64,000 bases of DNA, from assembly GCA_963681505.1 (NCBI GenBank), contig OY811988.1:4941607-5005606 (forward strand), given 5' to 3'. Positions 6,395 through 53,713 of this stretch are shown here, in pieces. The notes beneath the pieces are model-generated. The model made no database searches. It was not told the DNA's origin and worked only from the letters and a program-made list of their open reading frames with translations. Source of the stretch: Eunapius fragilis (lineage: Eukaryota; Porifera; Demospongiae; Spongillida; Spongillidae). Position 1 is the stretch's first letter. Every line of letters starts with the position of its first letter. The position numbers and the translations under genes were made by a program.

Positions 6395-6980
6395 GATGTT
6401 GGGGATTCCAAAATCTGCAAAGATGTCCCCAAATTTTCAGATGTTTAGGGACTGCCAAAAATGTCAAATTTTGTGGGCGGGGTCCTTATTGTGCAAAAAA
6501 ACCTGCGGGTGGGGGTTCCTCATTCTTTCTGTCCCTACTTCTACGTGACATCGGCAAGTAATCATAAATCTATTCCTAGGTAATGCATGCTACATATGCG
6601 CTCTAAAAGCATACAAGACGTAGTGAGTAGGTTGACTACCGCTCTAAAACATGCATCACTATGCTAACCAAAACATGCAATAATAATGATTTTTCTTTTA
6701 AATTTCAAAACCGAATCAAACGCATTATGAGGTGCTGAAGAATGGCCAAAAGGAGAAGGAACGTTATACTTGACGAATGTTAATCCTACGAGCATCAAAG
6801 CATTCGAGAAAACGATGTATTATTATCGTATTCTTTCCCCGTTGTCCGAATCGGATAGAATGAATAAATAATGTGCGGTTGATACAGTAATGATCAAAAT
6901 CGCTATAGTAGACTAAGTGTGGCATTCTTGCAGAGTAGCTCCATTGTGGTGTTATAGCTTGGCTGCATTTAATGAATTAT
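6395..6980 (-). repeat. Sub-repeat: 3' flank shared by family genes
   Basis: From CTTCTGAGCGATGAAATC and the GTGGGCGGGGTCC box near 6475 to the second exon of the family gene, this roughly 600-bp block recurs within the same unit at about 10612-11215 (same orientation) and again at 21174-21670, 31845-32470, 36000-36620, 50670-51290 and 54830-55380. It is the downstream flank of minus-strand family members and helped to mediate the rearrangements: three non-LTR fragments end at or inside it. Confidence 0.8.
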
Positions 6981-7270
6981 TATGTCAACTATCAAAACCA
7001 CTGCACAATCATTTATGACCAACTCACCTTATTAACCCATTCAATAAGTTCGGTTTGTATCGCTGCCGAAATTAACTTCAAGGCTGGGGTATTGCACGCC
7101 TTTCTTCCATGACAATATTCGAGAGTGTCGTTCAGGTACCACAGTATCTTACACACGGATATGACACTGGGATGAGAAATACTGTCAGTTTCCCTCTTTT
7201 GTATTTGAATAGGGTGACTGATAGTTACTACTATGAAGGTGAGTACCAAGAGACTTAAAATGCTAGACAT
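6903..7270 (-). CDS. Small secreted four-cysteine protein, copy 1 (unit R1)
   Basis: Exon 1 (7270-7028, 81 codons) and exon 2 (6962-6903, 19 codons plus TAG) are joined across a 65-nt intron with AAG|GTGAGT and ATGCAG|CC sites; the phase-0 join keeps the frame. The start is the ATG before the hydrophobic stretch M-S-S-I-L-S-L-L-V-L-T-F-I-V-V, a clear signal peptide of about 19 residues. A Lys-Arg pair follows at 24-25, a possible propeptide site. Cysteines are at 40, 53, 59 and 92; sequons at N47, N85 and N94. The region between them is predicted helical by eye. A TATA box (7329-7338) lies about 60 nt upstream. It is divergent from the copy at 9022. No known family recognised; a secreted ligand or defence peptide is possible but unproven. 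Confidence 0.8.
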
Positions 7271-9021
7271 GCTGTCGTGTTTGAAACACAGGACAATCGT
7301 ATAATGACCCAATGAATCTGGTACTTCACTATATATACGCATCATTCAATGCAAGGGTTGTTGTATATTTGAATCTTGCATTCCGGAAAAGTCATTATTT
7401 CCGTCAGCGGGTGGAAATGAATGAGCAGTTCTCCATGGATACATGATATGAGTTTGCAATAGAGCTTCGGGCATCCTTATACACATACCAGATGCCACCA
7501 CTGGCATCTGAATGCTGATATATGATAAATTATTACTGCCATTGTCCTGTGTCGATGCATATATATGAATGCGTATAAAAAGAAGGGAAAAATTAAAAAT
7601 GAGTGAAATTTCGTTATTTTAAATTTATTAACGCAATCCTTCTGTAGTTGAACGAACGCGACATTAATTGGACAAACGCGACATTAATTCTGCTTCGTAA
7701 ATATGCATGCAGACGCATTAAATAATTATCCGTGGCATCCAAGTCAATCTTACGCGAGCTGTAGAAATTCAGCCATCAATCAATTATAATGTATTTGAGT
7801 GGACTGCTGTCGCGGCATACAAGGTATTTTATACATGTACGTCTCTGAAAATAAACAGGAGAGAATTATTTCAATCGAGGATTTAGTCACTATTCTCATA
7901 AAAATTGATGACATTCCATCAAAACTGTACTCATTATGCCAAATGCCAGGCGGGCCCAGGCCCAGCTCCTGCTTGTGACCGGCAGGCAACAGGATAGGAC
8001 GGATAATTAAATCTTATCGTCGTGATGAGGCTATTGTTTGGTCCCAATATGCTACTAAATTCCTCGTTTCAAAACGATATGGGTCTTGTTGATTGTATCG
8101 TAATTTGGTGATCAACACGTGAGCGATGTCTGAAATATCTATGTAAGGCATGACGCCAAGCAATTATACTTAATGGATGATTGAGGAGGCTTCATTCGTT
8201 TAACGGAAGTAAACAAAGCAAATTATGAATACAAAGATTGCAGACATGTACATATATACATAATTATAGTTTCCACGACAACTTCATTGAAACTCCAGAA
8301 AGTCAGTTACGCCTTTAATTAATGTATTACACCATCCATGCCCATATGGATGTAAGAAGTTACTAACACAATGCATTCACTGTGAACCACGCGAAGTATT
8401 GTTAACATCGATAGAAACAAGAAATTTATTGGATTCAAGGTGCCGACCTAGAGGGTTGTAAACAGCCAGTGGGTTGAAAAACAAAATTTTTAAATTGTAA
8501 GATCAAATTAATGTATACTTTCTTATTTTAGTACTTTAATAAAGGCTTGAATTTTTACTATTCTTTATGGTTGAATTTGTTAGTCAGTATTTATAGCGTC
8601 TGCATGCATGTCGCCAGACTGTATTCCTGAAGCAGAATTAATGTCGCATTTGTTCATTACACTTAACCCACATTTTTTTATTTTTCGCGTTCTCTTTATA
8701 CACATTCGTATATATGCATTATGACTGCAAAATGGCAATAATATTTATCATACTTGAGCATGAGAATCCCAATGGTGGCATCTGGTATGTGTATAAGGAT
8801 GCCCGATGCTCTATTGCTAACTCACATCACGTATCCATGGAGAACTGCTCATACTTTTCCACCCGCTGACGGATATAATTTTCAATAAGTGACTTTTCCG
8901 GAATGCATGATCCGATTATACAACAATTGGTGATTACCCTTGCATTGAGTGATGCATATATAACGACGTACTAGAATCATTGGGTCATTATACGATTGTC
9001 CTGTGTTTCAAACACGACAGC
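7271..9021. promoter_or_regulatory. Shared 5' region between two divergent secreted-protein genes
   Basis: This 1.75-kb region separates head-to-head genes. TATA boxes lie at 7329-7338 (minus) and 8957-8963 (plus), each about 60-70 nt from its ATG. The two halves are partly mirror images. Each carries the same block about 200 nt upstream with a translatable G-G-I-W-Y-V-Y-K-D-A-R stretch (minus near 7500, plus near 8775). A minus-strand ORF at 7780-7989 (L-G-P-P-G-I-W-H-N-E-Y) has no ATG and is not kept in R3. No other gene seen. Confidence 0.55.
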
Positions 9022-9395
9022 ATGCATATGTCTAGCCTTTTAAGTTTCTTGGTACTCACCTTCATAGTAGTAACTATCAGTCACCCTATTCAAATACGAA
9101 AGAGGGAAACTGACATTAGTCCTCATCCTAATGTCACATCAGTGTGTAAGATCCTGTGGCATCTGAACGACACCATTCAATACTGTCGTGGAGGAAAAGC
9201 GTGCAATACCCCAGCCTTGAAGATAATTTTGGCAGCGATACAAACCGAACTTAGAGAATGGCTGAATAAGGTGAGTTGGTCATAAATGATTGTGCAGTGG
9301 CTGTGAAGGTTGACATAATAATTCCTTATATGCAGCCGAGCTATATCACCACAATGGAGCTACTCTGCAAGAATGCCACACATAGTCTATTGTAG
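9022..9395 (+). CDS. Small secreted four-cysteine protein, copy 2 (unit R1)
   Basis: Exon 1 ends at 9270 (AAG|GTGAGT) and exon 2 is 9336-9395 (ATGCAG|CCGAGC to TAG), separated by a 65-nt intron. Two in-frame ATGs, 9022 and 9028, are possible; 9028 matches the start of the other copies, and here an insertion added the first. The protein has a signal peptide (M-S-S-L-L-S-F-L-V-L), a Lys-Arg site at 24-25 and cysteines at 40, 53, 59 and 92. Compared with copy 1 it gains a sequon at N35 and loses the exon-2 one because TAT-AAC became TAT-ATC. TATA at 8957-8963. Paired divergently with the gene at 6903-7270. Confidence 0.8.
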
Positions 9396-9712
9396 TGATT
9401 TTGGTCAATTATGTATGTGTATCTACTATTTAAACACATCATTTATTCATTTAATCGATTTGGACAACGGGCGAATACAATAATAATACGTTATTTTCAA
9501 TTCACGAATGATTTACGTTACTGGAAGCCATTTTCATTCCCAAAAGTAAAACGTTCCTCATCTGTTTATCGTATTTTGCCACCCTTCAACGCCTTGTAGT
9601 AGTTGCATTGCGTTAATTTGATTTTTATTATTAGTATTTACATAAATTAATAAACATATCGTACCCCAGAAAAAAATAATTAAATATACATACATAAATA
9701 AATACACAATAT

Positions 9713-10602
9713 TCAACGAGCCCCTGCAGTGTGAGCCAGCAGTGCCCGTGCATTCTGTCGCATCAAGACAACTGACAGGTGGCAATATAGTTCATTTAGT
9801 GCTGCCGAGCATGATTGTCTCTGGCGCAAACTCAGCAATTTGCTCAAACGGGCAAACATGGAAACAGCCTCCTGGCCCCATCCACCATACGTTTCCACTA
9901 CAAGAGGGATGCAAGACCATCCCCTTTCATTGCAGGGACTATCATTCTTCAAATGCTTGTCCCTTTCCCCCTTCTCCGTTGTGGACCCTGGGATCATGCT
10001 CGCTTCAAGAATACTGTCTGAATTAAGCGGGTTGATGACCTTAAGGTTGAAGGCTGCCGGGCGAGATAAAGACCAATTAGGCACATAGACATCAGCAGAG
10101 CGCATGCGGTCCTTACAACCAAAGTTGCAGCCCTTTTCAACTTCGGGAGCAAGACCTGCGATTTGGCAGAAGTGTGCTAGACAATCTCGGAGACGGTTGT
10201 GTCGGGCTATGACAAACCCACCATGCTTATAAGTTAGTGAACGATGGCCCATTGCATCCATGGCAGAGGAACAGAAAGGGCATAGATCCGTCGGAGAATC
10301 TGAAGGCAACCCCAACAAAAACTTAAGAAGAACCTGCATTTCTGAGCGGTGCCCATTGCATCCATGGCAGAGGAACAGAAAGGGCATAGATCCGTCGGAG
10401 AATCTGAAGGCAACCCCAACAAAAACTTAAGAAGAACCTGCATTTCTGAGGACTCTAGGTTCAAACCCCAACTAGGCGATGGAGTAGCTCGAAGCCAAGC
10501 ATGAGCCTGGGGCTGGGAGACAGCTCTTAGTCTGGCTTTAGCAGCTGTCGATGACTCCTGTATAAGAGAAATAATACCTGCTTCTTCAATCTTCTGAGAC
10601 AA
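9713..10602 (-). pseudogene. C-terminal fragment of RLE-type non-LTR retrotransposon
   Basis: Minus-strand reading gives S-Q-P-Q-A-H-A-W-L-R-A, then C-P-F-C...H, a R-H-N-x-L-R-D block, R-P-A-D-V-Y-V-P-N-W, and the tail V-E-T-Y-G-G-W-G-Q-E-A. This is the arrangement of a CCHC finger and restriction-like endonuclease at the end of a group of invertebrate non-LTR elements. The fourth zinc ligand is Tyr instead of Cys (T-Y-K-H-G-G), and the usual Asp after the P-N-W block appears to be Asn, so it was probably inactive before amplification. A 104-bp duplication breaks the frame further. RT is missing: the fragment starts abruptly at 10602 against the sub-repeat. Confidence 0.8.
10247..10454. repeat. 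104-bp tandem duplication inside the non-LTR fragment
   Basis: The block starting GCCCATTGCATCCATGG at 10247 is repeated at once at 10351. R2 and R3 have one copy, so this arose in R1 after amplification. As 104 is not a multiple of three it shifts the frame. Confidence 0.9.
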
Positions 10603-11158
10603 CAATCTTCAGAGCGATGAAATCTATCATGTATTAAATTATATTCCTTAGATGCTGGGGATTCCAAAATCTACAAAGATATCCCCAAATTTTCAGATGT
10701 TTAGGGACTGCCAAAAATGTCAAATTTTGTGGGCGGGGTCCTTATTGTGCAAAAAAAACCTGCGGGCGGGGGTTCCTAATTCTTTCTGTCCCTACTTCTA
10801 CGTGACATTGGCAAGTAATCATAAATCTATTCCTAGGTAATGCATGCTACATATGCGCTCTAAAAGCATACAAGATGTAGTGAGTAGGTTGACTACCGCT
10901 CTAAAACATGCATCACAATGCTAACCAAAACATGCAATAATAATGATTTTTCTTTTAATTTCAGTACCGAATCAAACGCATTATGAGGTGCTGAAGAATG
11001 GCCAAAAGGAGAAGGAACGTTATACTTAACGAATGTTAATGCTACGAGCATCAAAGCATTCGAGAAAACGATGTATTATTATCGTATTCTTTCCCCGTTG
11101 TCCGAATCGGATAGAATGAATAAATAATGTGCGGTTGATACAGTAATGATCAAAATCA

Positions 11159-11371
11159 CTATAGTAGACTAAGTGTGGCATTCATGCATTGTGGTGTTAT
11201 AGCTCGGCTGCATTTAATGAATTATTATGTCAACCATCAAAACCACTGCACAATCATTTATGACCAACTCACCTTATTAACCCATTCATTAAGTTCGGTT
11301 TGTATCGCTGCCGAAATTATATTCAAGGCTGGGGTATGACACTGGGATGAGAACTAATGTCAGTTTCCCTA
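11159..11371 (-). pseudogene. Relic of the secreted-protein gene with internal deletions (R1)
   Basis: The 3' part of exon 1, the intron with an intact AAG|GTGAGT donor, and part of exon 2 can be read on the minus strand. Exon 2 has lost about 11 nt (the E-L-L-C region). Exon 1 lacks about 80 nt, from the C-N-T-P region to the region before the first cysteine. At 11372 it joins a non-LTR fragment, so signal peptide and promoter are gone. In R3 nearly all of this relic is deleted (55380). Confidence 0.75.
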
Positions 11372-11506
11372 GGGCATGTCTCAACCTCTCTAGCAGTTGA
11401 CTCTTATGGAGCTTGGGGTAGAGAAGCATCAAACTTTCTGACACAAGTCACAGCTAGTCTTGCAATACATGCACCAATCACTGCCAAAGACATAGGGATC
11501 TTTTGA
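11372..11506 (+). pseudogene. Fragment of a second RLE-type non-LTR retrotransposon
   Basis: The frame S-T-S-L-A-V-D-S-Y-G-A-W-G-R-E-A-S continues through L-A-I-H-A-P-I-T to a TGA at 11504. It matches the conserved tail V-V-E-T-Y-G-G-W-G-Q-E-A of the first family but is clearly a different element. Only about 45 codons are present. It recurs in R2 (36762-36902), R3 (55420-55555) and inverted at 26484-26632. Confidence 0.6.
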
Positions 11507-11610
11507 ATTGTTCTTAAACTTGAGTATTTGCTTAATAAGAGCGAATACCAGAACCATCCTCCGAATAGTGTAGAACGGAACTTGTGTTACTTAACGTGTA
11601 TCTGTATGCA

Positions 11611-11857
11611 TATGGGATCGTGGCATCGATAGGACCTAGCACATATTTTTTCAAGTTCTCAAATTATTTCATATTCTAAGAGACACTTGTGCCATCTACG
11701 ACTTTTTTTCTTACGCAATGGAAATTAGTTTGTCCATCATGGAGTTACAAGTGGCCTAATTTTTAATATTACGGTTACATTTTACTTGCACGCGTCAACT
11801 TTGATGCTCCTTCCTGGAAATATGCGCTAGGTCCCTTTTCGCTGCCATGATCCTATA
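11611..11857. mobile_element. 247-bp MITE with about 38-bp terminal inverted repeats
   Basis: The left end TATGGGATCGTGGCATCGA, then GGACCTAGCGCATATTT, is mirrored at the right end (AAATATGCGCTAGGTCCC, then TTTTCGCTGCCATGATCC) with a few mismatches. R3 (55661-55907) keeps the ends best. It has no coding capacity. Copies sit at the same place in R2 (37001-37247) and inverted at 26133-26379, so insertion preceded amplification. A target duplication is not clear. Confidence 0.75.
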
Positions 11858-11984
11858 AAATTATTGTCTTATTGAATTAAACTTTATTTTCTGTGCAACA
11901 CAACGTTGTAATCGACAAAGGTAACTGCAAAACTATTGCATACAGATGAAGCCGGTATTATTATTGTAGTCAAAATTCTCATCA

Positions 11985-12688
11985 CGACTAGCATTGTTTC
12001 AAGAGCGTGGGAGTATGCACAAATGGATATCGTGGTTTTGAAGCTCCTGCATGAAAGACTGCATATATTGGGTGCCATGGAAACTATATGAATATCGTAA
12101 ACTTTGATTTCATAATTTGTTTTGCTTACTACCGTTAAACGAATATAACCGCAAGCATCCATTGCAGCATAATTTCATGGCTTCATACCTTACATAGATA
12201 TATCAGACATGGTTCACGTGTTGGTCAACAAATTACGATACAATCAATAGACCCATTTGGCATAGAGATGAGGAATTAGGTAGCTCATCAGGAGGCAAAC
12301 ACAACCAAGCAATAACGTCATACGGTGGCAGCCACGACGATATGAATCAGAGCTTGTGCCTCACTGTCTAATTCCTAATTTGATGCAAGAATGTATTAAA
12401 TGAAATGAACAAACAGTTATGCATGGCGTTGGCTGTGTGTTGCTATTTAATACATTTGAGATAGAATTAATGTATTCAACCAGTAATAAAAACTTATGAG
12501 AACGTTGGTGGCATATAGGACAGAAAGGTAATTGTGGTGTAAAAAGGGGGTCTAATAAGAAGGGGAAATGTAATAGTCCTATATTTCGCCCATTTTTAGG
12601 ATATTAAGTTTGTGTGCGAAATATACAGCCGAGCTATAACACCACAATGAAGCTGCTCTGCAAGGATGCCACACTTTGTCTACTATAG
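11985..12688 (+). pseudogene. Diverged relic of the secreted-protein family, plus strand (R1)
   Basis: Frame Q-M-D-I-V-V-L-K-L-L-H-E-R-L (about 12015-12090) matches the relic near 14000 with mostly synonymous or conservative changes. Further downstream are R-V-G-Q-Q-I-T with an in-frame TAG and frameshifts, then E-N-V-G-G-I, and finally a complete family exon 2 after an ATACAG acceptor (12629-12688: N-T-T-M-K-L-L-C-K-D-A-T). The 5' part cannot be found. Probably a long-dead paralogue whose last exon survived. Confidence 0.5.
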
Positions 12689-12847
12689 TGATTATGATCA
12701 TTATCGTATCAACCACACATTATTTATCCGATTCGGACAACGGGCGAGAAGAGTACGATAACAATACATTGTTTTCTCGAAAGTTTTGATGGTCATGGCC
12801 ATTTTGATTCGGTAAAGTATAATATTCCTTCTAATATTGGCCCTCCC

Positions 12848-13259
12848 TTGAACGCGCTTCATCAAATTCCCTTCATGCCACACCCTTGCTTCTCCTCATC
12901 GGGATACCCCCGCTTTTCTTTAGATGCCGCACTTCTACATTGGGACACCTCGAACCATTCCATGGCCATCCAGTCCTCCCCACTCCACAAAGTATACCCC
13001 TCGTACTCCACCAGTAGATGCAACCCCCGCTTCTACCTCCGCAACTAGACACCATTTGGGGATCCTAATACACCATCTTCGTATCTTGGATAGGGGTCTG
13101 CTGCAAGTAAATAATGTTGCAGTCCAATTGGACACCATGTCATTATCACACACAGACTATGAATACAGGTGTTCATATCAGCTAGTATGTAGAACAAATT
13201 ACTTAGCTTCGTCAATAGTTTGGTTGGTTAAATTGCAGGAACGAAGGGTGCATGAATGA
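12848..13259 (+). other. Conserved open segment of unclear status
   Basis: Overlapping frames on both strands are open in R1, R2 (38238-38649), R3 (56894-57305) and inverted near 24884-25120. The plus frame is Pro/Ser/Thr/His-rich (S-S-P-P-H-S-T-K-Y-T-P). The segment follows an orphan second exon and looks like the 3' flank seen after other family genes. Openness on both strands at once argues for base composition rather than coding. I do not call a gene here. Confidence 0.3.
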
Positions 13260-13370
13260 TGAATACTGAGCACCACAAAATTAAATGGTCTTATTGCAAA
13301 ATAGTCTAGTTACTACCTCTCATATCACAAAGAAATTAAAACAGATGAAACAAGCAATACAAACATTCTC

Positions 13371-13567
13371 TATGAGAACGTTGGTGGCATGTTGAATTGA
13401 AGGAAACAGGGGTCTAAATTTTAATAGTCCTACATTTCGCACACAAACATTATGTCCTACAAACATAGGACTATAACATTTCCCCTTCTTAATAGACCCG
13501 TGTTTCCTTCCTTCTTACACCACTATTACCTTTCAATCCTATATGCCACCAACGTTCTCATAGAGAA
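13371..13567. repeat. Palindrome where two gene relics converge (R1)
   Basis: CTCTATGAGAACGTTGGTGG at about 13371 is mirrored by CCACCAACGTTCTCATAGAG at about 13547. Between them GAAGGAAACAGGGGTCTAA faces TTAATAGACCCGTGTTTCC. The loop is roughly 60-100 bp. The arms are the matching 3' ends of convergent relics. R3 (about 57410-57610) and inverted block 24420-24640 keep it; R2 lost one arm (see 38790-38815). Confidence 0.8.
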
Positions 13568-14135
13568 TGTTTTCATTACTTGTTGAAAGCATTAATTCTA
13601 TCTCAATTATATGAAATAGCAACACAGTACCAAAGCCGTATTTGATACTTTCTTGCATCACATTAGGAATTAGATAGTAAGGCACAAGCTCTGATTCGTA
13701 TCGTCGTGGCTGCCTCCATACGACATTATTGCTTGATTGTGTTTGCCTCCTGATAGCTACCAAATTCCTCATCTCTATTCGAAATGGGTCTGTTGATTGT
13801 TTCGTGATTTGTTGACCAACACGTGAGCGATGTCTGAAATATCTATGTATTGTATGAAGCCATGAAATTATGCTGCAATGATGCTTGCGGTTATATTCGT
13901 TTAACGGAAGTAAGCAAAGCAAATTATGAAGGCAATGTTTACGATATTCGTATAGTTTCCATGGCACCCAGTATGACTAGTCTGTCATGCAGGACCTTTA
14001 AAACCACGATGTCCATTTGTGTACACTCCCTCTCTCTCGTTCACGGAGATGAGAAGTAATATCAGTTTCCCTTTTCGTATTTGAAGAGAGTCACTGATAA
14101 TTCCTCCTATATGAAGGTGAGAACAGACAATGACG
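13539..14135 (-). pseudogene. Diverged family member or relic, minus strand (R1)
   Basis: From 14135 downwards the frame S-L-Q-I-R-K-R-E-T-D-I-T-S-H-L-R matches exon 1 of the secreted family just after its signal peptide, then diverges (E-C-T-Q-M-D-I-V-V-L-K) to a stop near 13960. A second open stretch (13967-13539, 142 codons) reads R-V-G-Q-Q-I-T-K-Q-S-T-D-P-F and ends Y-E-N-V-G-G-I. Both stretches are kept in R3 and in the inverted copy 23756-24458. The start is a problem: no ATG precedes the first stretch. It is unclear whether this is a working two-part gene or a slowly decaying one. Confidence 0.4.
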
Positions 14136-15453
14136 GAACCCTGGCTTCCGCAGCAGCTGAATGAATCACACTGAATCTGCATGCATGCAGTATGATAACC
14201 GGGCGCGTGCACACCAGAGCACAGCAGAGATAAGCGAAAGCAGCAATTTATTAAGGCAATAATTGTGCTATATAATGTTGCTTGATAGGTGGACATGAGG
14301 CAAGCCAGTTGAATTTTACTAAACATGCACAGCGGATCAGCTGCCCGTGCTAATTCCACTTGTATTGTCGCGCATACGTGTGAATAACCGAGACTGTTAT
14401 GTCATGCACTTAAGCAAAACAACCATGTACGAACTGTTAAATTGCTGTGTTGGTCTCTTACTTTAATAATGTGTAACTAGATTAATAAATTCAACCATGT
14501 GCAAATGAAATATAAACCGCAATGAAATAAGATAGACAAAATCAATACAAAAGTCAATTCTGCTTCCAATAATATGCCATACACATGACACGCAGATCCA
14601 TGAAATATCTACAGCATTAATATCTGCATCGCAATAGATACTTCCTGGTATAAGATTAGGAAAGTGATAGTGAGGCGCAAACTCTGATTAATATCATCGT
14701 GGCAGGCCTCAGGATGACGTTTTTGCTTGATTGTGGTCGCCACCAGATGTGCTACCAAATTTTCTTCTCTATGAGCGAAATGGTCTACCGATCTTGTAGA
14801 TTGCTGTTCAACGCGTGAGCAGAAACATAACTATTTAATTATGTTTCATTTTCTGAACGGAAGTAGTAAAGGACTATTATGAAAGCAAAGTTTACAGACA
14901 TGTACATAATTATATTCACATAGCATCCGAGATGAAACGTCAGAAGTCAGTCATGCCTTTAATTAATGTATTTCAACTATCACTTTCTCTTTATTTACAT
15001 ATTACAGCATCGAATGATCTAAAAAGCTACTAGGTAAAAGTCTTACTCAGATTTAAAGATTAACCTTCTCAACTGGTGCTGACAGAGCTCGCTATTCATG
15101 TTCGCTGTTTACAATCCCCTAGGCAGGCACCTTGTACCATATAATTATCTTGTTTATATCTAGGTATGGGCACTATGCGTAAAATTGATATGTGAACATG
15201 GCATGGATGATGGAGCTGGCCTCCCTCATTTTCCTCACTGATGTGGTTTTATTATTTTCCAAAAGTAGTCATTTGAATGCAACTATGCATATATATAGGT
15301 CTAAGTGTATGCTGTGTACTTTATTGTGTTCAAATATTAATCAGTTGTGTAGTAGTACACTTATGAACTTTCTCGCATTTTTAATTTTTCCCCTTCTGTT
15401 TATATACATGCATATATATGCATTGAGGCATATTACTTATCACATATCAGCAT
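14136..15453. other. Spacer without a confident gene (R1)
   Basis: AT-rich DNA kept in all units. It is a diverged equivalent of 8160-8760 (blocks AACGGAAGTA, ACAGACATGTACATA, GCCTTTAATTAATGTATTTC in the same order), so it is the 5' region of the decayed gene copy at 15705. Confidence 0.5.
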
Positions 15454-15645
15454 ATGAACCCCAGTGGTGGCATCTGGTATGTTTATAAGGATGAACGACG
15501 ATCTGTTGCTAACTCACACCATGTACCCAAGAAGAACTGCTCATTCATTTTGTACCCAATTTCATTTAGTGACATTTCCGGGATGCAAGATCCGAATATA
15601 CAAAAATTGGTGATTACTCTTGCATTCAATAGTGCATATATATAA
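15454..15645 (+). other. Conserved ORF upstream of the family promoter (R1)
   Basis: ATG at 15454 opens 63 codons, G-G-I-W-Y-V-Y-K-D-E-R-R-S-V-A-N-S to A-Y-I. The same block precedes every family promoter; versus the version at 8767 several changes are synonymous (GTT/GTG, CAC-CAT/CAT-CAC), which hints at past coding. Near intact genes it is cut short by a stop after about 30 codons. It could be the end of an older neighbouring exon, or regulatory DNA. Confidence 0.35.
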
Positions 15646-15704
15646 CGGAGTACTAGATTCATTGGGTCATTCATTATACGATTATTCTGTAACAAAAACG
15701 ACAG

Positions 15705-16079
15705 TATTCTAGCCTTTTAAGTCTCCTGGTACTCACCTTCATAGGAGGAATTATCAGTGTCTCTCTTCAAATACGAAAGAGGGATACTGACATTACTTCT
15801 CATCCTAATGCCACATCCGTGTACAAGATACTGAGGTATCTGAACGACCCATTTAATACTGCCGTGGAGGAAAAGCATGCAATACCCCAGTCTTGAAGAT
15901 AATTTCTGCAGTGATATAAACCGAAATTAAAGAATGGGTGTATAAGCCGAGCTTATCATAAATGAATGCGTTTACGAACAGCTGGTTTTGATGGTTGACA
16001 TAATAAATCATTAGATGCAGTCGAGCTACTACAACACCACAGTGGAGCTACTCTGCAAGAATGCCACACATCGCCTATA
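15705..16079 (+). pseudogene. Decayed copy of the secreted-protein gene (R1)
   Basis: Sequence aligns with exon 1, intron and exon 2 of the intact copies, but the start ATG has become ATT (CAGTATTCTAGCC against CAGCATGTCTAGCC), the frame is shifted in the middle, and the donor AAG-GTGAGT is now AAG-CCGAGC. The exon 2 acceptor and the N-T-T region remain. The TATA-like TATATATAA at about 15638 is still there. The same lesions occur in R2 (40870-41245) and R3 (59752-60125), so the gene died before amplification. Confidence 0.8.
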
Positions 16080-16253
16080 ATAATTAGTTTGGTCAATGAT
16101 GTATCTAGTACTGTAACACACTATCTATATACGTGGACAACAGGTGAGGTGTACAGTAATAATACGTTGTTTTATCGAATAGCTTTCTATACTATTGTTA
16201 TATAAAGTATAAATTTCGTTATCTGTTTATCGTATTGGCCATCCTTCAACGCC

Positions 16254-16436
16254 ATGTGTCGTTCCATTACGATTTTGATTCTGTTCTTAAATTATATTAC
16301 AACTGTTATAGATTTTACATGCACAGTGAAAGTAAAAAATACGTTATCACAAGAACTTTACGATGTGTGCAAATGCTTGCTGCGCTGTAACCTTATATGT
16401 AGAAATGACATGCTTGGTTACAACAACCGTGACTGA
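16254..16436 (+). CDS. Candidate small cysteine-rich secreted peptide (R1)
   Basis: ATG at 16254 opens 60 codons. The first 20 residues (M-C-R-S-I-T-I-L-I-L-F-L-N-Y) look like a signal peptide. The remainder has five cysteines, including C-K-C-L-L-R-C-N-L-I-C. It is intact in R2 (41418-41600) and R3 (60299-60481). Against it: it lies in sequence that elsewhere is family 3' flank, and a second frame (16363-16602, 79 codons, ATG) overlaps it and is equally kept. Unrecognised. Confidence 0.35.
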   Translation: MCRSITILILFLNYITTVIDFTCTVKVKNTLSQELYDVCKCLLRCNLICRNDMLGYNNRD

Positions 16437-16602
16437 TGTGTCTTCTCAAGAACCAATTATTTATACGGCGTCACTACGCATCATACCGGTATTCCCATTC
16501 GTCACGCCCCAGACCCTAGCGCTGATGGATTACATCAGCGCAAGTAGTGGAATGTTTGAATTAGGCATGTATTTCACTAGTGCCACCTATTTGATTGCCT
16601 AA

Positions 16603-17207
16603 GTCCTTGTTCTTCTGTTAGAACTGGCAGAGAAAGCTAGCTACAAATAACTTCGGGGCCACTAAGTATATACATCAGAAGCGCTCCGAAAGCGAGCGAT
16701 TTAATTTCCAACTTCAGGTTGGAATCATTATAGTTACGCGACAACAACCGTCCAACCACAAAGCGTTGGTAGTCGGTCATGTATAGCCCTACTGCACACA
16801 GCCCGACAACCATTAAAGAGATATCATATCAACTCCATTTGTTATTTATCACTACGTGACTATCACGCGAATATTCTATCGGAATGTCAATTATAAAAAG
16901 TAACACTCGCATTGAAATGTGTGACTAATTATAAATTCATTTAGTATGATGGATAGTGCAATTTAGGCCATTTGATAGAGGCTCACGGAAAATGAAAAAA
17001 TTTGAAAACTTGAAAAACTACCCAGAAGGATGATTCCCATATATATAATCCTCGTGATACTCAAGTCGTTTGAACCCATGTGGGGGTATATGCACATCTT
17101 GTATGCCTATTTTGTGTGTCCATTGTAATCCTCGCACAAACGGTTGTAAAAATCCATATGAACCGACAAAAGGCCAGAGGAGTGAACCGGCTGGCTTTTA
17201 AACATGA
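16603..17207. other. No gene seen
   Basis: AT-rich sequence kept in R2; in R3 about 110 bp are missing near 60670. No open frame with support and no structured repeat seen. Confidence 0.5.
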
Positions 17208-17397
17208 CGTATGTACTACACTGGTTTTGCCGGTTACGCATTCCTATAGTCTCAGCCCCAGACCTTAATACGTCAAAGATTAAATCACCAGACGTAAGAA
17301 CTAGGGTCTGCGAGCTCGTGGCAAATTCGTGGACGCGAGCCAAACGTATTCCAGCGTCTCCAATCGGATTACAGGCATACCATTTGCTCATGTTGTC
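17208..17397 (-). CDS. Candidate internal exon, minus strand (R1)
   Basis: After the acceptor ATTATCCAG|GAC at 17398 the frame reads M-S-K-W-Y-A-C-N-P-I-G-D-A-G-I and stays open past 17208, where ACATAC|GTCATG could be a donor. R2 and R3 have nine more bases in the same frame (I-H-P-L-F against I-F), and an indel of a multiple of three supports coding. It lies about 400 bp downstream of the next candidate exon on the same strand. Unrecognised. Confidence 0.35.
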
Positions 17398-17809
17398 CTG
17401 GATAATTTGAAAAATTATCAAGGGTGATATTGTTGGACACTTCCATATATAATATATTATGTTTTATGGTAATCAATATAGCATAAAAATCAAATCGACA
17501 CATCGCCCAAAATATTAACGCTTTCGGCTCCCTCCCCATGCTCCCAGTAAAGCACTACCCTTTAACCACACATAGGTATAGCGTCTTGTGCTCGCCTGCA
17601 AAACACAAAACACACACACACACAAGATCAATAGCATTACGACCCATCAATAACATGGAGTGAGGGTCAGCCAAACAACACATATGTATTTAGAGGTGTG
17701 GACCCCACACACCCTCAAGGGAAAAACCTGATGCGCAGATTTAAAAAAACCCTTTGGGAAAAAATCTGCACTCAGGAAAAGCCTTCAAACAAGCACACTC
17801 CCTAAACAC

Positions 17810-17897
17810 CTAATCCCTATATCACAGTCAAATTCTTCCTCCACATCATGAATCATGATCTGATAGGCTGTCAAGGAAACCTCAACTGAGAACTGTT
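17810..17897 (-). CDS. Candidate exon with consensus splice sites, minus strand (R1)
   Basis: A pyrimidine-rich acceptor (TTCTTTGTCCCTGCAG) precedes it at 17898; the possible donor ATTAG|GTGTTT ends it at 17810. The open frame reads S-V-E-V-S-L-T-A-Y-Q-I-M-I-H-D-V-E-E-E-F-D. The frame is also open upstream of the acceptor through a hydrophobic stretch (W-L-S-L-C-V-V-H-L-L), where three R1/R2 differences are synonymous, but no ATG is found there. Downstream of the candidate promoter at 17988-18038. Unrecognised. Confidence 0.35.
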
Positions 17898-17987
17898 CTG
17901 CAGGGACAAAGAACACACAACTACACCAACAAAAAGTTTGCAGCAAGTGAACAACACATAGACTGAGCCAAAAGCCCCGCTCACACC

Positions 17988-18038
17988 TATTTAAACCCCC
18001 ACCACGTGGCCATCAGATTCACGTGCCGTACAACCAAT
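17988..18038 (-). promoter_or_regulatory. Candidate core promoter on the minus strand
   Basis: In minus orientation the order is an inverted CCAAT box (18034-18038), two CACGTG E-boxes (18020-18025 and 18003-18008) and TTTAAATA (17988-17995), a normal RNA polymerase II promoter layout. It faces the candidate exon at 17810-17897. The arrangement is kept in R2 (about 43145-43210) and R3 (about 61910-61970). Confidence 0.45.
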
Positions 18039-18264
18039 CACATATGGAGGGAGCCCAGTTTCTGCCTAATTCACCGTGTTCAACCGACAGAAACGGATAT
18101 GTTCGTATTTTTAACACAACATACCAGACCATTACTATGTGAAAATCCATTATACGCATGCGGAGCACCGAAGTTACAAGGTCCGATACCCCATAGAGTC
18201 AAAACGGCCACATCTTCAGGTAGGAGCGTCCAAATCAGTTCAAATTCGGTACGAGGTCCTGTCG

Positions 18265-18490
18265 TTATTGATTTGTTCTGTTCGTTAATTTTTATTTTAT
18301 CCGTTGGGGAGATATAGCTGTGAAAAGTATGTGCACGGATTCCCGCTTGATTCGCGCCAATGATTTAGGCATTCGCTTCCGTCATTGAATGTCTAATTCG
18401 CTGGCCCGAATAGAGCGGAGAACCGTGCACGCAATTTGCACAGCTATATCTCCGTAACGGATCAAATTAACGAACAGAACAAATCAATAG
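18265..18490. repeat. Foldback inverted repeat, about 70-bp arms (R1)
   Basis: ATTGATTTGTTCTGTTCG to GTGCACGG (18265-18338) is mirrored by CCGTGCACG to CGAACAGAACAAATCAAT (18423-18490), with a loop of about 84 bp. Present at the same place in R2 (43433-43656) and R3 (62188-62411). It may be a MITE remnant; no target duplication is clear. Confidence 0.75.
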
Positions 18491-18684
18491 CGGATTGTAA
18501 ACACAATGGCGATGCATACCGTCCTTATCTCAATAACGTTGAAAGTGATATATCAAATGTGTAAAGATTTAATAAGTGAAATATATGAGTCCACCTTCCA
18601 AGTGCCTCATTGTGTTAAACCTCCAGAGTTCGTTGAGTTATTTGCATATTGACGTGCTATTGTCCTGGGTGTCCGTTTATGTGA

Positions 18685-18920
18685 TTATACATTTATCTTG
18701 GAATAATTCGCGGTTTGCGGGATCAGAACATATGCCCGTGACTGCTTAATACCAGGCACGTCAGATGTCCCCCAACTTAGTTCCCGAGTGATTCTTAGTA
18801 CAGCACATTTGACATTTTCCGTTCTATTGAATTGTTGGGCCATTTTTCTAATGTACGCGAGTGCGTTTCTCAAATTTCCATCATATGGTGCATTATGACA
18901 AAACCTGAAAGATCTGTTGA
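18685..18920 (-). CDS. Candidate 3' coding exon, minus strand (R1)
   Basis: After an acceptor TTTCACTGCAG (AG at 18921-18922) a frame of about 78 codons runs to a stop at 18685. It contains Y-D-G-N-L-R, Y-I-R-K-M-A-Q-Q-F-N-R-T, L-R-I-T-R-E-L-S-W-G. R3 keeps it (62608-62843) with a few replacements. R2 has two extra bases (GCCCGCGTGAC) and is frameshifted. No family recognised, and no upstream exon is certain. Confidence 0.35.
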
Positions 18921-19050
18921 CTGCAGTGAAACCTAGAGCTTATGCATCAAAAAGCCATTGTGTGCCTTTAAACCAATATGAATGTTAAGCAGACAGTCAA
19001 ATGGTTATTATTTTCGAACCTTAGGCAGTTTAAACTGCTTTTCTAGCTTC

Positions 19051-19550
19051 GTCCCCAGGCCGTCAATTAAAGTTTAGGAAAAAAGACGGCCTGGTACCTA
19101 TTGCCACTATGTTAGTGCGCATGCGCTGGCCATTACCTGTAAAACACGTAATCGTATACTGGCTTAGCTTGTAAACCTTTGACATCGTATATACGTATAC
19201 GCTACGCGTATACGTATACGATTGTCAAAGTCTTGTAGGATTTGTGACAGTGTTTTGTCTCGTACATATTATGTCGCACTTTTATCAAGGGAATCTTTGG
19301 CATCAGATCTTGCAAACAGGCTCAGCAAGGTTGCCCGTGTCCCAGTGGCTTCTGAGGATGGTTTGTCCAGGTTCATTTGCATACCTTGCAAAAACAAACT
19401 TGCTTCGCGCGTAACGCTTTACGGAAAGGTTTACAAGCTAAGTATACGATTACGTGTTTTTCAGATAATGGCCAGCGCATGCGCACTAACATAGTGGCAT
19501 AAGGTACCAGGCCGTCTTTTTACCTAAACTTTAATTGACGGCCTGGGGAC
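19051..19550. mobile_element. 500-bp foldback transposon with about 130-bp inverted repeats (R1)
   Basis: Both ends begin GTCCCCAGGCCGTCAATTAA, and the match continues inward for about 130 bp through GTGCGCATGCGCTGGCCATTA to GCTTAGCTTGTAAACC. Within the left half lies a second palindrome of alternating CGTATACG (about 19180-19232). The centre is not repeat-like and encodes a zinc-finger-like segment (19222-19494). R3 has a full copy at 62964-63463; R2 is cut at 44512. The ends may extend a little, since the flanks also show imperfect mirror similarity. Confidence 0.85.
19222..19494 (+). CDS. Zinc-finger-like ORF carried by the foldback element (R1)
   Basis: The frame reads S-C-R-I-C-D-S-V-L-S, then L-A-S-D-L-A-N-R-L, then F-I-C-I-P-C-K-N-K-L: two C-x2-C pairs about 47 residues apart, with the spacing and hydrophobic pattern of ZAD-like treble-clef fingers. 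The frame has no ATG (it opens with TTG in the palindrome) and runs into the right inverted repeat, where it stops. It is kept in R3 (63135-63407) with a handful of replacements. Likely a captured exon fragment or the remnant of a transposon-encoded DNA-binding domain. Confidence 0.5.
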   Translation: MSKSCRICDSVLSRTYYVALLSRESLASDLANRLSKVARVPVASEDGLSRFICIPCKNKLASRVTLYGKVYKLSIRLRVFQIMASACALT

Positions 19551-20576
19551 GACGAGGCTACTGCTTTTCCGATTATGTCTTACCTAAAGCATCTTTGTCC
19601 GACCCCATCCGACGAAAGTTACGCACCAATTAGACCTGTATGATATGTTTGAAGTAAAAAGCAGTGCGATCAAACATGTAATTATAATACTTCCGTGAAC
19701 GAAGGAACCAATAATTTTTTTTCAACTTGGAAGGTAATATTGTCAATTTGAATTTTTAGTATTTTCAAAGGTCATTTAGAAAAAAGGAAGATGACTGCCA
19801 TTTAACCATACGTGAATCGGCGATTAAATGGAGTGCATCTATGTAGAAGGCCTTAGTCAGTTTGTGTCGGTGCGGCGAGATAAGTGAAAAGTATGTTGAG
19901 GGATTACGAGTTCAGTCTGACTACCTGAGCAATTAGTTATACCAATTGTATTTCAGCTGTCAGTGGGTGCGTGGGTAAACTGAAATTGATAATCCTTAAC
20001 ATACCTTCAGTCATTATATTATTATCTCGTCACACCTACGTATTCTATTATATATAGCAATAGCCAATGCATGTAATTTCGATGAGTAACCAACCACTGT
20101 GCACGAAGCTGAAAGTCCGCGGTAAGCATACAGGGTGTCCACGAAAAAACGCAACGCGTTTATTCCAAAATAGGATTGTCAATTTATAAATGTACAATAA
20201 CCATGTTTAGTCAAATACGAACACGTTGCTAGAATTCTATTTTATTTTAACAATTCAAATGATTAAACCAAATAGCTTGCAAGTAATTAATTTGCCACAA
20301 TAATGTACGACAACTTTAAATTTATAACATGATTTAGAATCTGCAGAATTACCATGATGAAAGTATGAAAAAGTATGAAATTTGACTGGCGTAGTACTAG
20401 TTAACATTCAAAACAAATTGCTAAACGGCAATTAATTAACTTAAAATTAGTGGAATGGCCTGCATGGGTGACTTCCGCTCACGCTGTCGTACGAAACATA
20501 AAAATCACAATGGTTTGGGTGTAACTTACCAAACTGTGCAGTAATTATTTCAATTTTTTAAATGTAACAATTAAAT
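19551..20576. other. Spacer without a confident gene
   Basis: Up to about 20090 it matches the end of R3. A diverged inverted copy of 5290-5440 lies at about 20260-20410 (C-A-A-A-T-T-T-C-A-T-A type block). A minus ORF that is open in R3 (63497-63709) is broken here by a T-run change at 19710. No gene supported. Confidence 0.5.
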
Positions 20577-34513: not shown

Positions 34514-34881
34514 ATGTCTAGCCTTTCAAGTTTCTTGGTACTCACCTTCATAGTAGTAACTATCAGTCACCCTATTCAAGTACGAAAGAGGGAAACTGAC
34601 ATTAGTTCTCTTCCTAATGTCACATCAGTGTGTAAGATCCTGTGGCATCTGAACGACACCATTCAATATTGTCTTGGTGGAAAAGCGTGCAATACCCCAG
34701 CCTTGAAGATAATTTTGGCAGCGATACAAACCGAACTTAGAGAATGGCTGAATAAGGTGAGTTGGTCATAAATGATTGTGCAGTGGCTGTGAAGGTTGAC
34801 ATAATAATTCCTTATATGCAGCCGAGCTATAACACCACAATGGAGCTACTCTGCAAGAATGCCACACATAGTCTATTGTAG
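34514..34881 (+). CDS. Small secreted four-cysteine protein, copy 5 (unit R2)
   Basis: Exon 1 34514-34756 with ATG at 34514, exon 2 34822-34881, 65-nt intron, consensus sites. Signal peptide M-S-S-L-S-S-F-L-V-L; Lys-Arg kept in V-R-K-R-E; cysteines 40, 53, 59 and 92 kept. C-L-G-G-K replaces C-R-G-G-K. Exon 2 retains the N-T-T sequon that R1 copy 2 lost. Confidence 0.8.
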
Positions 34882-46343: not shown

Positions 46344-46702
46344 CTACAATTGACTAAGTGTGGCATTTTTGCAGAGTAGCTCCATTGTGGTGTTATAGCT
46401 CGGCTGCATATAAGGAATTATTATGTCAACCTTCACAGCCACTGCACAATCATTTATGACCAACTCACCTTATTCAGCCATTCTCTAAGTTCGGTTTGTA
46501 TCGCTGCCAAAATTATCTTCAAGGCTGGGGTATTGCACGCTTTTCCTCCACGACAGTATTGAATGGTGTCGTTCAGATGCCACAGGATCTTACACACTGA
46601 TGTGACAGGACTAATGTCAGTTTCCCTCTTTCGAATTTGAATAGGGTGACTGATAGTTACTACTATGAAGGTGAGTACCAAGAAACTTAAAAGGCTAGAC
46701 AT
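46344..46702 (-). CDS. Small secreted four-cysteine protein, copy 6
   Basis: Exon 1 46702-46469 (78 codons), exon 2 46403-46344, 65-nt intron, consensus sites. Nine bases are missing in frame before the first cysteine (D-I-S-P-V-T-S-V-C), which drops the His-Pro-Asn stretch. Signal peptide M-S-S-L-L-S-F-L-V-L, Lys-Arg and all four cysteines remain. Divergent partner at 48472. Confidence 0.78.
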
Positions 46703-50355: not shown

Positions 50356-50552
50356 ACCAAGCCGTGGTTGAGGAAACGCTAACAAAATTACTAAGGCTGT
50401 TACTAAGAAATATAAGGCAACTTGCTGCCAGTTACGCTTTATATATGCACTCGTGTACATACATTGAACTTTTATTTATTGCAGAGCCAAAATTGAATAA
50501 ATATGATAGAACCTTTAAATGCCTTGAAAATACTATTGCATATTGTAAATGA
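50356..50552 (+). pseudogene. Candidate 3' exon, shortened (R3)
   Basis: Copy of 6042-6280. A change gives Y-C-K-stop at 50552, dropping the last 25 or so residues. The upstream candidate ATG is also lost (ACG at about 50171). Confidence 0.4.
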
Positions 50553-51219: not shown

Positions 51220-51587
51220 CTATAGTAGACTAAGTGTGGCATTCTTGCAGAGTAGCTCCATTGTGGTGTTATAGCTCGGCTGCATCTAATGAATTATTAT
51301 GTCAACCATCAAAACCACTGCACAATCATTTATGACCAACTCACCTTATTAACCCATTCAATATGTTCGGTTTGTATCGCTGCCGAAATGATCTTCAAGG
51401 CTGGGGTATTGCACGCCTTTCTTCCATGACAATATTCGAGAGTGTCGTTCAGGTACCACAGTATCTTACACACGGATATGACACTGGGATGAGAACTAAT
51501 GTCAGTTTCCGTCTTTTGTATTTCAATAGGGTGACTGATAGTTACTACAATGAAGGTGAGTACCAAGAGACTTAAAATGCTAGACAT
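51220..51587 (-). CDS. Small secreted four-cysteine protein, copy 8 (unit R3)
   Basis: Exons 51587-51345 and 51279-51220, 65-nt intron, consensus sites. The dibasic site is lost (Q-K-T-E-T) as in copy 7, and the N-terminal mature region matches copy 7 (I-E-I-Q-K-T-E-T-D-I-S-S-H-P-S). T-E-H-I-E replaces T-E-L-I-E. Cysteines and sequons are kept. Divergent partner at 53346. Confidence 0.8.
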
Positions 51588-53345
51588 GCTGTCGTGTTTG
51601 AAACACAGGACAATCGTATAATGACCCAATGAATCTGGTACTTCACTATATATACGCATCATTCAATGCAAGGGTTATTGTATATTTGAATCTTGCATTC
51701 CGGAAAAGTCATTATTTCCGTCAGCGGGTGGAAATGAATGAGCAGATCTCCATGGATACATGATAAGAGTTTGCAGTAGAGCTTCGGGCATCCTTATACA
51801 CATACCAGATGCCACCACTGGCACGTGAATGCTGATATATGATAAATTATTACTGCCATTGTCCTGTGTCGATGCATATATATGAATGCGTATAAAAAGA
51901 AGGGAAAAATTAAAAATGCGTGAAAGTTCGTTATTTTAAATGTATTAACGCAATCCTTCTGTAGTTGAACGAACGCGACATTAATTGGACAAACGCGACA
52001 TTAATTTTGCTTCGTGAATATGCATGCAGACGCATTAAATAATTATCCGTGGCATCCAAGTCAATCTTACGCGAGCTGTAGAAATTCAGCCATCAATCAA
52101 TTATAATGTATACGTATTAGAGTGGACTGCTGTCGCGGCATACAATGTATTATTTACATGTACGTCTCTGAAAATAAACAGGAGAGAGTTATTTCAATCG
52201 AGAATTCAGGCACTATTCTCATAAAAATTGATGACATTCCATCAAAACTGTACTCATTATGCCAAATGCCAGGCGGGCCCAGGCCCAGCTCCTGCTTGTG
52301 ACCGGCAGGCAATTGGAAAGGACGGATAATTAAATCTTATCGCCGTGACGAGGCTATTGCTTGGTCCCAATGTGCTACTAAATTCCTCGTTTCAAAACGA
52401 TATGGGTCTTGTTGATTGGATCGTAATTTGCTGACCAACACGTGAGCGATGTCTGAAATATCCATGTAAGGCATAACGCCAAGCAATTATGCTTAGTGGA
52501 TGATTGAGGAGGTTGCGTTCGTTTAACGGAAGTAAACAAAGCAAATTATGAATACAAAGTTTGCAGACATGTACATATATACATAATTATAGTTACCATG
52601 ACAACTTCATTGAAACTCCAGAAAGTCAGTTACGCCTTTAATTAACTTGTTACATCCATGCCCATATGGATGTAACAAGTTACTAACACAATGCACTCAC
52701 TGTGAACCACGAGAAGTGTAGTTAACATCGATAGAAACAAGAAATTTATCGGTTTCAAGGTGCCGACCTAGAGGGTTGTAAACATGCAGCCAGTGGGTTG
52801 AAAAACAAAATTTTTAAATTGTAAGATCAAATTAATGTATACTTTCTTATTTTAGTACTTTAATAAAGGCTTGAATTTTTACTATTCTTTATGGTTGAAT
52901 TTGTTAGTCAGTATTTATAGCGTCTGAATGCATGTCGCCAGACTGTATTCCTGAAGCAGAATTAATGTCGCATTTGTTCATTACACTAAACCCACATTTT
53001 TTTATTTTTCGCGTTCTCTTTATACACATTCATATATATGCATTATGACTGCAAAATGGCAATAATATTTATCATACTTGAGCATGAGAATCCCAATGGT
53101 GGCATCTGGTATGTGTATAAGGATGCCCGATGCTCTATTGCTAACTCGCATCATGTATCCATGGAGAACTGCTCATACTTTTCCACCCGCTGACGGAAAT
53201 AATTTTCAATAAGTGACTTTTCCGGAATGCAAGATCCGATTATACAACAATTGGTGATTACCCTTGCATTGAGCGATGCATATATAGCGACGTACTAGAA
53301 TCATTGGGTCATAAGACGATTGTCCTGTCTTTCAAACACGACAGC
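51588..53345. promoter_or_regulatory. Shared 5' region of the divergent pair (R3)
   Basis: Equivalent of 7271-9021, with both TATA boxes. A small inverted repeat (ACTTGTTACATCC / GGATGTAACAAGT, about 52645-52682) is sharper here than in R1. No other gene seen. Confidence 0.55.
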
Positions 53346-53713
53346 ATGTCTAGCCTTTTAAGTTTCTTGGTACTCACCTTCATAGTAGTAACTATCAGTC
53401 ACCCTATTCAAATGCGAAAGAGGGAAACTGACATTAGTCCTCATTCTAATGTCACATCAGTGTGTAAGATCCTGTGGCATCTGAACGACACCATTCAATA
53501 TTGTCGTGGAGGAAAAGCGTGCAATACCCCAGCCTTGAAGATAATTTTAGCAGCGATACAAACCGAACTTAGAGAATGGCTGAATAAGGTGAGTTGGTCA
53601 TAAATGATTGTGTAGTGGCTGTGAAGGTTGACATAATAATTCCTTATATGCAGCCGAGCTATAACACCACAATGGAGCTACTCTGCAAAAATGCCACACA
53701 TAGTCTATTGTAG
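53346..53713 (+). CDS. Small secreted four-cysteine protein, copy 9 (unit R3)
   Basis: Exon 1 53346-53588, exon 2 53654-53713, 65-nt intron, consensus sites. Signal peptide M-S-S-L-L-S-F-L-V-L, Lys-Arg (M-R-K-R-E), N-V-T sequon and all four cysteines are kept. Nearly identical to copy 2 but with the N-T-T sequon in exon 2. Confidence 0.8.

What the first reader, a model, noticed from the sequence alone, without database searches (positions are those of the whole stretch)
6903..53713. Nine intact copies of an unrecognised two-exon, four-cysteine secreted protein family
Copies at 6903-7270, 9022-9395, 21607-21974, 32395-32762, 34514-34881, 46344-46702, 48472-48839, 51220-51587 and 53346-53713 share a signal peptide, four cysteines, an exon of about 81 codons, a 65-nt intron and a 19-codon last exon. 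Every intact frame keeps its splice phase, although the surrounding DNA has many relics. The encoded protein matches no family I know. Frame preservation is seen directly; function as a secreted ligand, defence or recognition factor is inference.
Basis: partly seen in the sequence, partly recalled or inferred. Interest (0 to 1): 0.8.

Follow-up and report, generated by a model that had tools for sequence, protein, structure and literature searches.

The report
Expanding family of small secreted proteins
The window, probably from a sponge, holds nine working-looking copies of a small disulfide-bonded secreted protein that belong to a much larger, still unnamed family packed on one chromosome and kept by natural selection, whose job in the animal is unknown but is most likely outside the cell, in defence or recognition.

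Summary
Nine copies have an intact signal-peptide-like start, four cysteines (one copy has a fifth), a phase-0 GT-AG intron of 65 nt and a 19-codon last exon. They are not nine independent witnesses: the window is a young, partly inverted duplication array of segments about 93-98% identical, with 16 further broken or partial copies. About 83 near-full-length first exons in five subfamilies lie on one chromosome (C18, 3.7-5.1 Mb) of a 219-Mb genome. The other subfamilies have an eight-cysteine plan. The window form is derived from one of them and kept exactly the cysteines that aligned members share. The genes look real: omega 0.40, 0.49 and 0.36-0.38 in three subfamilies, each rejecting 1; introns of 14 lengths; a TATA box 47-75 nt before the ATG in 43 of 45 genes against about 5% background. 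No Pfam, PDB, prokaryotic or viral relative was found. Best reading: an orphan secreted disulfide-stabilised family under birth-and-death evolution, probably an extracellular effector or recognition factor. Function and expression were not shown.

The parts
6903..7270 (-). Copy W1: exon 1 7270-7028, intron 7027-6963 (65 nt), exon 2 6962-6903; 100 aa, 4 Cys
9028..9395 (+). Copy W2: exon 1 9028-9270, intron 9271-9335, exon 2 9336-9395; extra in-frame ATG at 9022
21607..21974 (-). Copy W3: exon 1 21974-21732, intron 21731-21667, exon 2 21666-21607; fifth Cys at residue 18
32395..32762 (-). Copy W4: exon 1 32762-32520, intron 32519-32455, exon 2 32454-32395
34514..34881 (+). Copy W5: exon 1 34514-34756, intron 34757-34821, exon 2 34822-34881
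46344..46702 (-). Copy W6: exon 1 46702-46469 (in-frame 9-nt deletion), intron 46468-46404, exon 2 46403-46344; 97 aa
48472..48839 (+). Copy W7: exon 1 48472-48714, intron 48715-48779 (donor GTGCGT), exon 2 48780-48839; no dibasic site
51220..51587 (-). Copy W8: exon 1 51587-51345, intron 51344-51280, exon 2 51279-51220; no dibasic site
53346..53713 (+). Copy W9: exon 1 53346-53588, intron 53589-53653, exon 2 53654-53713
7271..7400 (-). Upstream region of W1 with a TATA box starting 67 nt before the ATG; a like box (64-71 nt before the ATG) stands before the other eight copies
15708..16082 (+). Broken full-length copy (frameshift); sister relics at 40872-41246 and 59753-60127
11159..11370 (-). 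Partial copy with part of exon 1 missing; sisters at 26620-26842 (+) and 36544-36766 (-); related fragment at 55385-55420
14042..14124 (-). Relic of the signal-peptide part only; sisters at 23874-23951, 39215-39293, 58087-58163
12621..12688 (+). Exon-2-only relic; sisters at 25302-25369, 29195-29261, 38011-38078, 56670-56737
3912..20091 (.). Duplication unit, matched in pieces at 29385-44509 and 48890-64000 (about 96-98% identity), with inverted pieces such as 27047-22340 (95.4%) and 48892-45425 (93.7%)

Best explanation
The nine copies are members of a superfamily of secreted, disulfide-stabilised small proteins, about 83 near-full-length first exons in one 1.4-Mb stretch of one chromosome. 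Shown by sequence: a TATA-type box, a hydrophobic N-terminal segment like a signal peptide, one phase-0 short intron (by splice consensus), a C-x12-C-x5-C core with a last invariant cysteine in exon 2, and purifying selection. Inferred: the signal peptide is cut near residue 18. In 28 of the 45 genes read a dibasic pair between residues 24 and 26 can be cut by a furin-like protease, releasing a roughly 70-100 residue, mostly helical, possibly N-glycosylated mature protein. In the window subfamily a deletion of about 15 codons at the intron/exon-2 junction and further losses removed four cysteines, which should leave two disulfides among the four that the other aligned members share; that simplified form then multiplied by tandem and inverted segmental duplication under birth-and-death turnover. 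The most likely role is an extracellular effector or recognition factor, towards microbes, neighbours or self, in a probable sponge. The gene family and its architecture are about 0.95 likely; secretion about 0.9; the defence-or-recognition role about 0.45.
For: Gene models in 45 genes with one phase-0 intron of 56-89 nt; 43 of 45 introns would break the frame if kept. Codon models: omega 0.40-0.41 (23 A genes), 0.49 (6 E genes), 0.36-0.38 (10 F genes), with omega = 1 rejected at p 5e-7, 1.6e-4 and 6.6e-6. Two D-F pairs: pairwise omega 0.14 and 0.20, though dS is near saturation there (1.7-2.3). Members of other subfamilies only 32-58% identical to the first row keep the same plan. TATA box starting at -75 to -47 in 43 of 45, background 5.2-5.7%. 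C-x12-C-x5-C in 44 of 45. In the 15-row alignment the only invariant cysteines are the four kept in the window form. The A clade is sister to three E genes (support 93) inside E, on a long branch, in the midpoint-rooted codon tree of 44 genes. Every match listed by two whole-genome protein searches lies on C18 (in one search, 150 of 187 candidates were scored and a few matches were not listed). Array structure and relics.
Against: No transcript or peptide was seen, and splice sites were chosen by me from consensus patterns, so the kept frames are partly a matter of that choice. Omega was computed on intact frames only (C4010, broken in exon 2, was left out of the all-gene alignment), which biases it downward, and gene conversion in the array would disturb both tree and omega. 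Pairs across the A-E split have omega 0.63-0.79 (three pairs), much nearer to 1 than within subfamilies: relaxed or adaptive change at that split is not told apart. In the A subfamily the signal and pro segments show pN above pS (0.045 vs 0.014; 0.091 vs 0.018) and the start of the mature part 1.1, so constraint is seen in the core and exon 2 only. Broken copies are not cleanly neutral: pN/pS 0.51-0.94 for two relics against five references, against 0.45-0.52 for five intact pairs. The dibasic site is missing in 17 of 45, including all six E and eight of ten F genes. Predicted net charge of ten mature forms is about -3.5 to +2.9, so they are not typical cationic antimicrobial peptides. The structure model is poor (pLDDT 57).
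Confidence: 0.6

Rival explanations
1. The intact frames are a by-product of very recent segmental duplication; the sequence is not under selection.
For: Segments carrying the copies are about 93-98% identical, and 16 of 25 family places in the window are already broken or partial.
Against: Members of other subfamilies, 32-58% identical to the first aligned row, keep frame, intron phase, core cysteine spacing and in nearly all cases the TATA box; omega is well below 1 in three subfamilies.
Confidence: 0.04
2. A venom- or toxin-like offensive secretion: a prepro-peptide family with a conserved signal segment and a fast mature part.
For: Signal, short pro-segment and dibasic site precede a cysteine-stabilised mature part in 28 of 45 genes; in five A-E pairs the signal/pro segment has 3-7 replacement differences over about 53 sites against 39-45 over about 130 in the rest of exon 1; tandem array with birth and death.
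Against: Core and exon 2 are under purifying selection within the A subfamily; the dibasic site is dispensable; no toxin family matched in Pfam.
Confidence: 0.18
3. An endogenous signalling ligand or gamete/self-recognition pheromone family rather than a defence factor.
For: Near-neutral, N-glycosylation sequons in all ten members examined, weak helix-pair prediction, strong core constraint.
Against: Dozens of young copies and heavy turnover are unusual for a hormone (general knowledge); no receptor is known.
Confidence: 0.25
4. A skeletal-matrix or structural secreted protein family (as galaxins and calcarins).
For: Secreted-looking, cysteine-bearing, duplicated, and the animal is probably a sponge (inference).
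Against: No di-cysteine in any of 45 proteins; regions of repeated di-cysteines mark calcarins (PMC12419799, passages).
Confidence: 0.08

Closest known systems
SCRiPs, small cysteine-rich proteins of reef corals (PMC2652719, passages seen)
   Same: Taxonomically restricted, signal peptide, proprotein-convertase site in almost all but not every member, cysteine-rich mature part, several genes
   Different: The SCRiP spacing motif ends in CCC and the mature part is 41-48 residues; here no CC occurs in 45 proteins, the core is C-x12-C-x5-C with a final C-x8-C in the eight-cysteine forms, and the part after the dibasic site (or after residue 18) is 74-100 residues in ten members
Mussel CRP-I family (PMC10138031, title and start of abstract in the listing only)
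   Same: By that listing, a marine gene family with presence/absence variation between individuals; used as an analogy only
   Different: Not compared in sequence
Pfam DUF19 (PF01579)
   Same: Weak profile match in 2 of 15 members (best E 0.034)
   Different: For the one such member scanned on its own, 13.9 bits against a curated cut-off of 23.2
Galaxin/calcarin proteins (PMC12419799, passages seen)
   Same: Secreted, cysteine-bearing, duplicated genes in a sponge
   Different: Di-cysteine regions and beta-hairpins; no di-cysteine here

Membership tests
SCRiP | Cysteine spacing Cx6-7Cx4-6CPx3-6Cx4-6Cx5-6CCC | tested here: not met
   Spacing listed for 45 proteins; no CC in any
SCRiP | Signal peptide plus, in almost all members, a proprotein-convertase site before the cysteine-rich part | tested here: inconclusive
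   Hydrophobic N-terminus in the 45 proteins by eye, no predictor was available; dibasic pair in 28 of 45
Galaxin/calcarin | Repeated di-cysteine residues | tested here: not met
   No CC in 45 of 45 proteins
Pfam DUF19 | Score at or above the curated cut-off of 23.2 bits | tested here: not met
   13.9 bits for the one matching member scanned on its own; 2 of 15 members match at E up to 1, best E 0.034
Any family with a solved structure | Sequence or profile match in the PDB | tested here: not met
   phmmer 0 matches at E up to 10; a profile of 15 members gave 8 matches, all one kinase (haspin), at E 0.37 or worse
Lineage-restricted secreted disulfide-rich multigene families (general kind) | Local cluster, birth and death, signal peptide, conserved cysteines, purifying selection on the core | tested here: met
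Lineage-restricted secreted disulfide-rich multigene families (general kind) | Restriction to one lineage | tested here: inconclusive
   No relative in prokaryotic genomes or viral contigs, each scanned with one peptide pattern; no other eukaryotic genome could be searched
Lineage-restricted secreted disulfide-rich multigene families (general kind) | Expression and secretion of the product | not testable with these tools
   No RNA or peptide data

The most novel reading that the evidence does not exclude
A sponge chromosome carries a single-locus, rapidly turning-over repertoire of secreted helical mini-proteins. One branch lost half of its cysteines by a junction deletion and further changes and then expanded into an individually variable array that serves as a self/non-self or microbe-discrimination code.
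Probability: 0.15. Interest if true: 0.78.

Novelty: new member of a known kind. Interest (0 to 1): 0.5.

Why it matters
It adds an orphan secreted-protein superfamily, with a series from an eight- to a four-cysteine form, in what is probably an early-branching animal, where the molecules of allorecognition and microbe sorting are poorly known (general knowledge). Because all the matches found lie in one 1.4-Mb stretch, its variation between individuals and its expression after grafting or microbial challenge can be tested directly.

Tried and rejected
Rejected: duplication alone (omega); SCRiP, galaxin/calcarin and DUF19 membership. A prokaryotic or viral relative was not found (9 and 15 pattern matches, none confirmed; one peptide pattern per scan). 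A cationic antimicrobial-peptide reading is weakened by near-neutral charge in ten members.

Led nowhere: profile search of PDB sequences; structure prediction on exon 1 only (pLDDT 57), too weak for a fold search, so none was run; Rfam on the window (no match); organism naming by an 18S fragment (a 50-base match in a short insert) and by a silicatein query (best full-length match 52% identical, not decisive). A homeodomain query gave seven matches, 44-49% identical, five of them within about 110 kb of C16; with recalled knowledge that sponges lack Hox genes and keep an NK cluster, this suggests a sponge. The paper search meant to support that point found nothing. Paper searches (listings only) showed no paper on this family; searching by words cannot prove absence. 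NCBIfam and PHROGs were not searched.

One control row (r15726) was put in the wrong register by my own offset and is dropped; two relics remain.
Full report
Observation. Exon 1 runs from ATG for 81 codons (78 in one copy) to an AAG or AAA codon followed by GTG. The intron is 65 nt, phase 0, and ends in GCAG. Exon 2 is 19 codons and a stop. The product is 97-100 residues with cysteines at 40, 53, 59 and 92 (37, 50, 56 and 89 in the shorter copy) and one extra cysteine in the copy at 21607. The window also holds 16 partial or broken copies among 25 family places.

Context. A self-comparison shows a young duplication array: 3912-10346 matches 29385-35834 at 97.8%, related segments return at 48890-64000, and inverted pieces match at 93.5-95.4%. 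The units lie about 19 and 25 kb apart.

Extent. DNA and protein searches of the whole assembly (219 Mb, 24 contigs) place every listed match on contig C18, the protein matches between 3.7 and 5.1 Mb. I count about 83 near-full-length first exons: 39 of the window type (rows at E below 1e-33), 6 of type E, and 24 of type F (two lacking the signal part), 6 of type D and 8 of type C. Three further C-like matches and other partial matches are left out. The tool scores only the best candidates (150 of 187, 101 of 101) and did not list every match, so the count is a lower bound and does not prove absence elsewhere. Most of these places were not read base by base, so not all are known to be intact.

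Gene models. I read 45 genes: 23 of the window type (nine in the window), 6 E, 10 F, 2 D and 4 C; the rest were not read because letters from the genome were limited. Splice sites were set by a consensus pattern for each subfamily. On these models all have one phase-0 GT-AG intron of 56-89 nt, 14 different lengths; 43 of 45 introns would break the frame if retained. C4010 has a broken exon 2. A TATA-type box starts 47-75 nt before the ATG in 43 of 45; the other two are F4328 (box at -77) and C4180 (no match). Random stretches of the same region have such a box in 5.2% and GC-matched ones in 5.7%. Related genes are not independent, so the binomial figure printed overstates the strength.

Cysteines. 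The E, F, D and C genes carry eight cysteines in the mature part, except D4258 with nine, E4860 with seven and the broken C4010; a few have further cysteines in the signal segment. The spacing C-x12-C-x5-C is kept in 44 of 45, and the last pair is C-x8-C in the E, F, D and C genes other than C4010. In a 15-row alignment the only invariant cysteines are four, and these are exactly the four of the window type. Compared by eye with E genes, the window type lacks about 15 codons at the start of exon 2, has its donor moved by a few codons, and has lost four cysteines. In a codon tree of 44 genes the window type is one clade (support 100) and is sister to E4840, E4866 and E4869 (support 93) inside an A+E clade (support 98). 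Rooting is by midpoint and gene conversion is not modelled. The direction eight to four is inferred from this tree and from the other four subfamilies.

Selection. With a one-ratio codon model omega is 0.40-0.41 for the window type (lnL -1277.4 against -1290.1 at omega 1), 0.49 for E (-1175.5 against -1182.6) and 0.36-0.38 for F (-978.1 against -988.2); p is 5e-7, 1.6e-4 and 6.6e-6. Pooled pN/pS over the nine window copies is 0.47. Against this, three A-E pairs give 0.63-0.79, so the change to the four-cysteine form went with weaker constraint or adaptive change. Within the window type, core and exon 2 have pN/pS of 0.27 and 0.21, the start of the mature part 1.1, and the signal and pro segments 3.3 and 5.0. 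Those last values reflect very little synonymous change: 3 of 26 codons vary synonymously against 26 of 42 in the core (Fisher p 4e-5), a contrast not significant in E or F. Gene conversion of the 5' end or constraint on its nucleotides could cause it. Two broken copies give pN/pS of 0.51-0.94 against five references, and five intact pairs 0.45-0.52: the right direction, but small numbers.

Identity. Pfam gave no match for two window-type proteins and only scattered sub-threshold matches for 15 members. The PDB gave none of meaning. Prokaryotic genomes and viral contigs gave none. The coral SCRiP motif and the calcarin di-cysteine rule are not met. No other eukaryotic genome could be searched, so how far the family is spread outside this genome is open.

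Structure. AlphaFold2 on the nine first exons gave a low-confidence model (pLDDT 57, pTM 0.32) with two helices, 34-55 and 62-80, after the signal helix. It covers three of the four cysteines and should be read only as a hint of a helical core.

Organism. Seven matches to an Antennapedia homeodomain are 44-49% identical, and five of them lie within about 110 kb of contig C16. With recalled knowledge of sponge NK clusters and missing Hox genes, this suggests a sponge; a silicatein query was not decisive. This is inference.

Function. Secretion is likely from the hydrophobic N-terminus and the cysteines. A dibasic site follows in 28 of 45. N-glycosylation sequons occur in all ten members examined. 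Local clustering, heavy turnover, young duplicates and core constraint are the pattern of extracellular effector or recognition families (general knowledge); the near-neutral charge argues against a classical cationic antimicrobial peptide. I commit to an extracellular defence or recognition role at about 0.45, with a signalling ligand (0.25) and an offensive secretion (0.18) as rivals.

Verdict. A real, unnamed, selected gene family, larger and older than the finding says; a new member of a known kind (lineage-restricted secreted disulfide-bonded multigene families), with an unusual halving of the cysteine set before expansion.

Noticed in passing
window 7271-7400 and exon 1, codons 1-26, of the A subfamily: Synonymous variation is nearly absent in the signal/pro segment of the window type (3 of 26 codons against 26 of 42 in the core), and 5' flanks are less diverged than 3' flanks in the seven A-type pairs compared, nearly equal in one, as if the 5' end were homogenised or constrained.
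   Followed up: partly
window 10247-10450: A tandem pair of 104 bp (100% match) overlaps a long open frame that looks retroelement-like by recall.
   Followed up: no
window 44344-45024, 20734-21237, 35201-36007, 54030-54836: Long open frames that look like pieces of a retroelement (by recall), repeated with the duplication units; a weak, sub-threshold reverse-transcriptase match in the first only of the two scanned.
   Followed up: no
window 12621-12688 and its four sisters: Exon-2-only relics all break off within a few bases of the splice acceptor, which suggests one truncation event copied by the segmental duplications.
   Followed up: partly
L040 (C18:4409000-4415200) and L037 (C18:4257600-4258900): In two of 45 genes (F4411, D4258) the intron is a multiple of three without a stop, so intron retention would give a longer in-frame protein.
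   Followed up: no
C16 2.88-2.99 Mb of the same genome: Five homeodomain matches within about 110 kb, 44-49% identical to Antennapedia: possibly an NK-like cluster, with no closer Hox-like match in that search.
   Followed up: no
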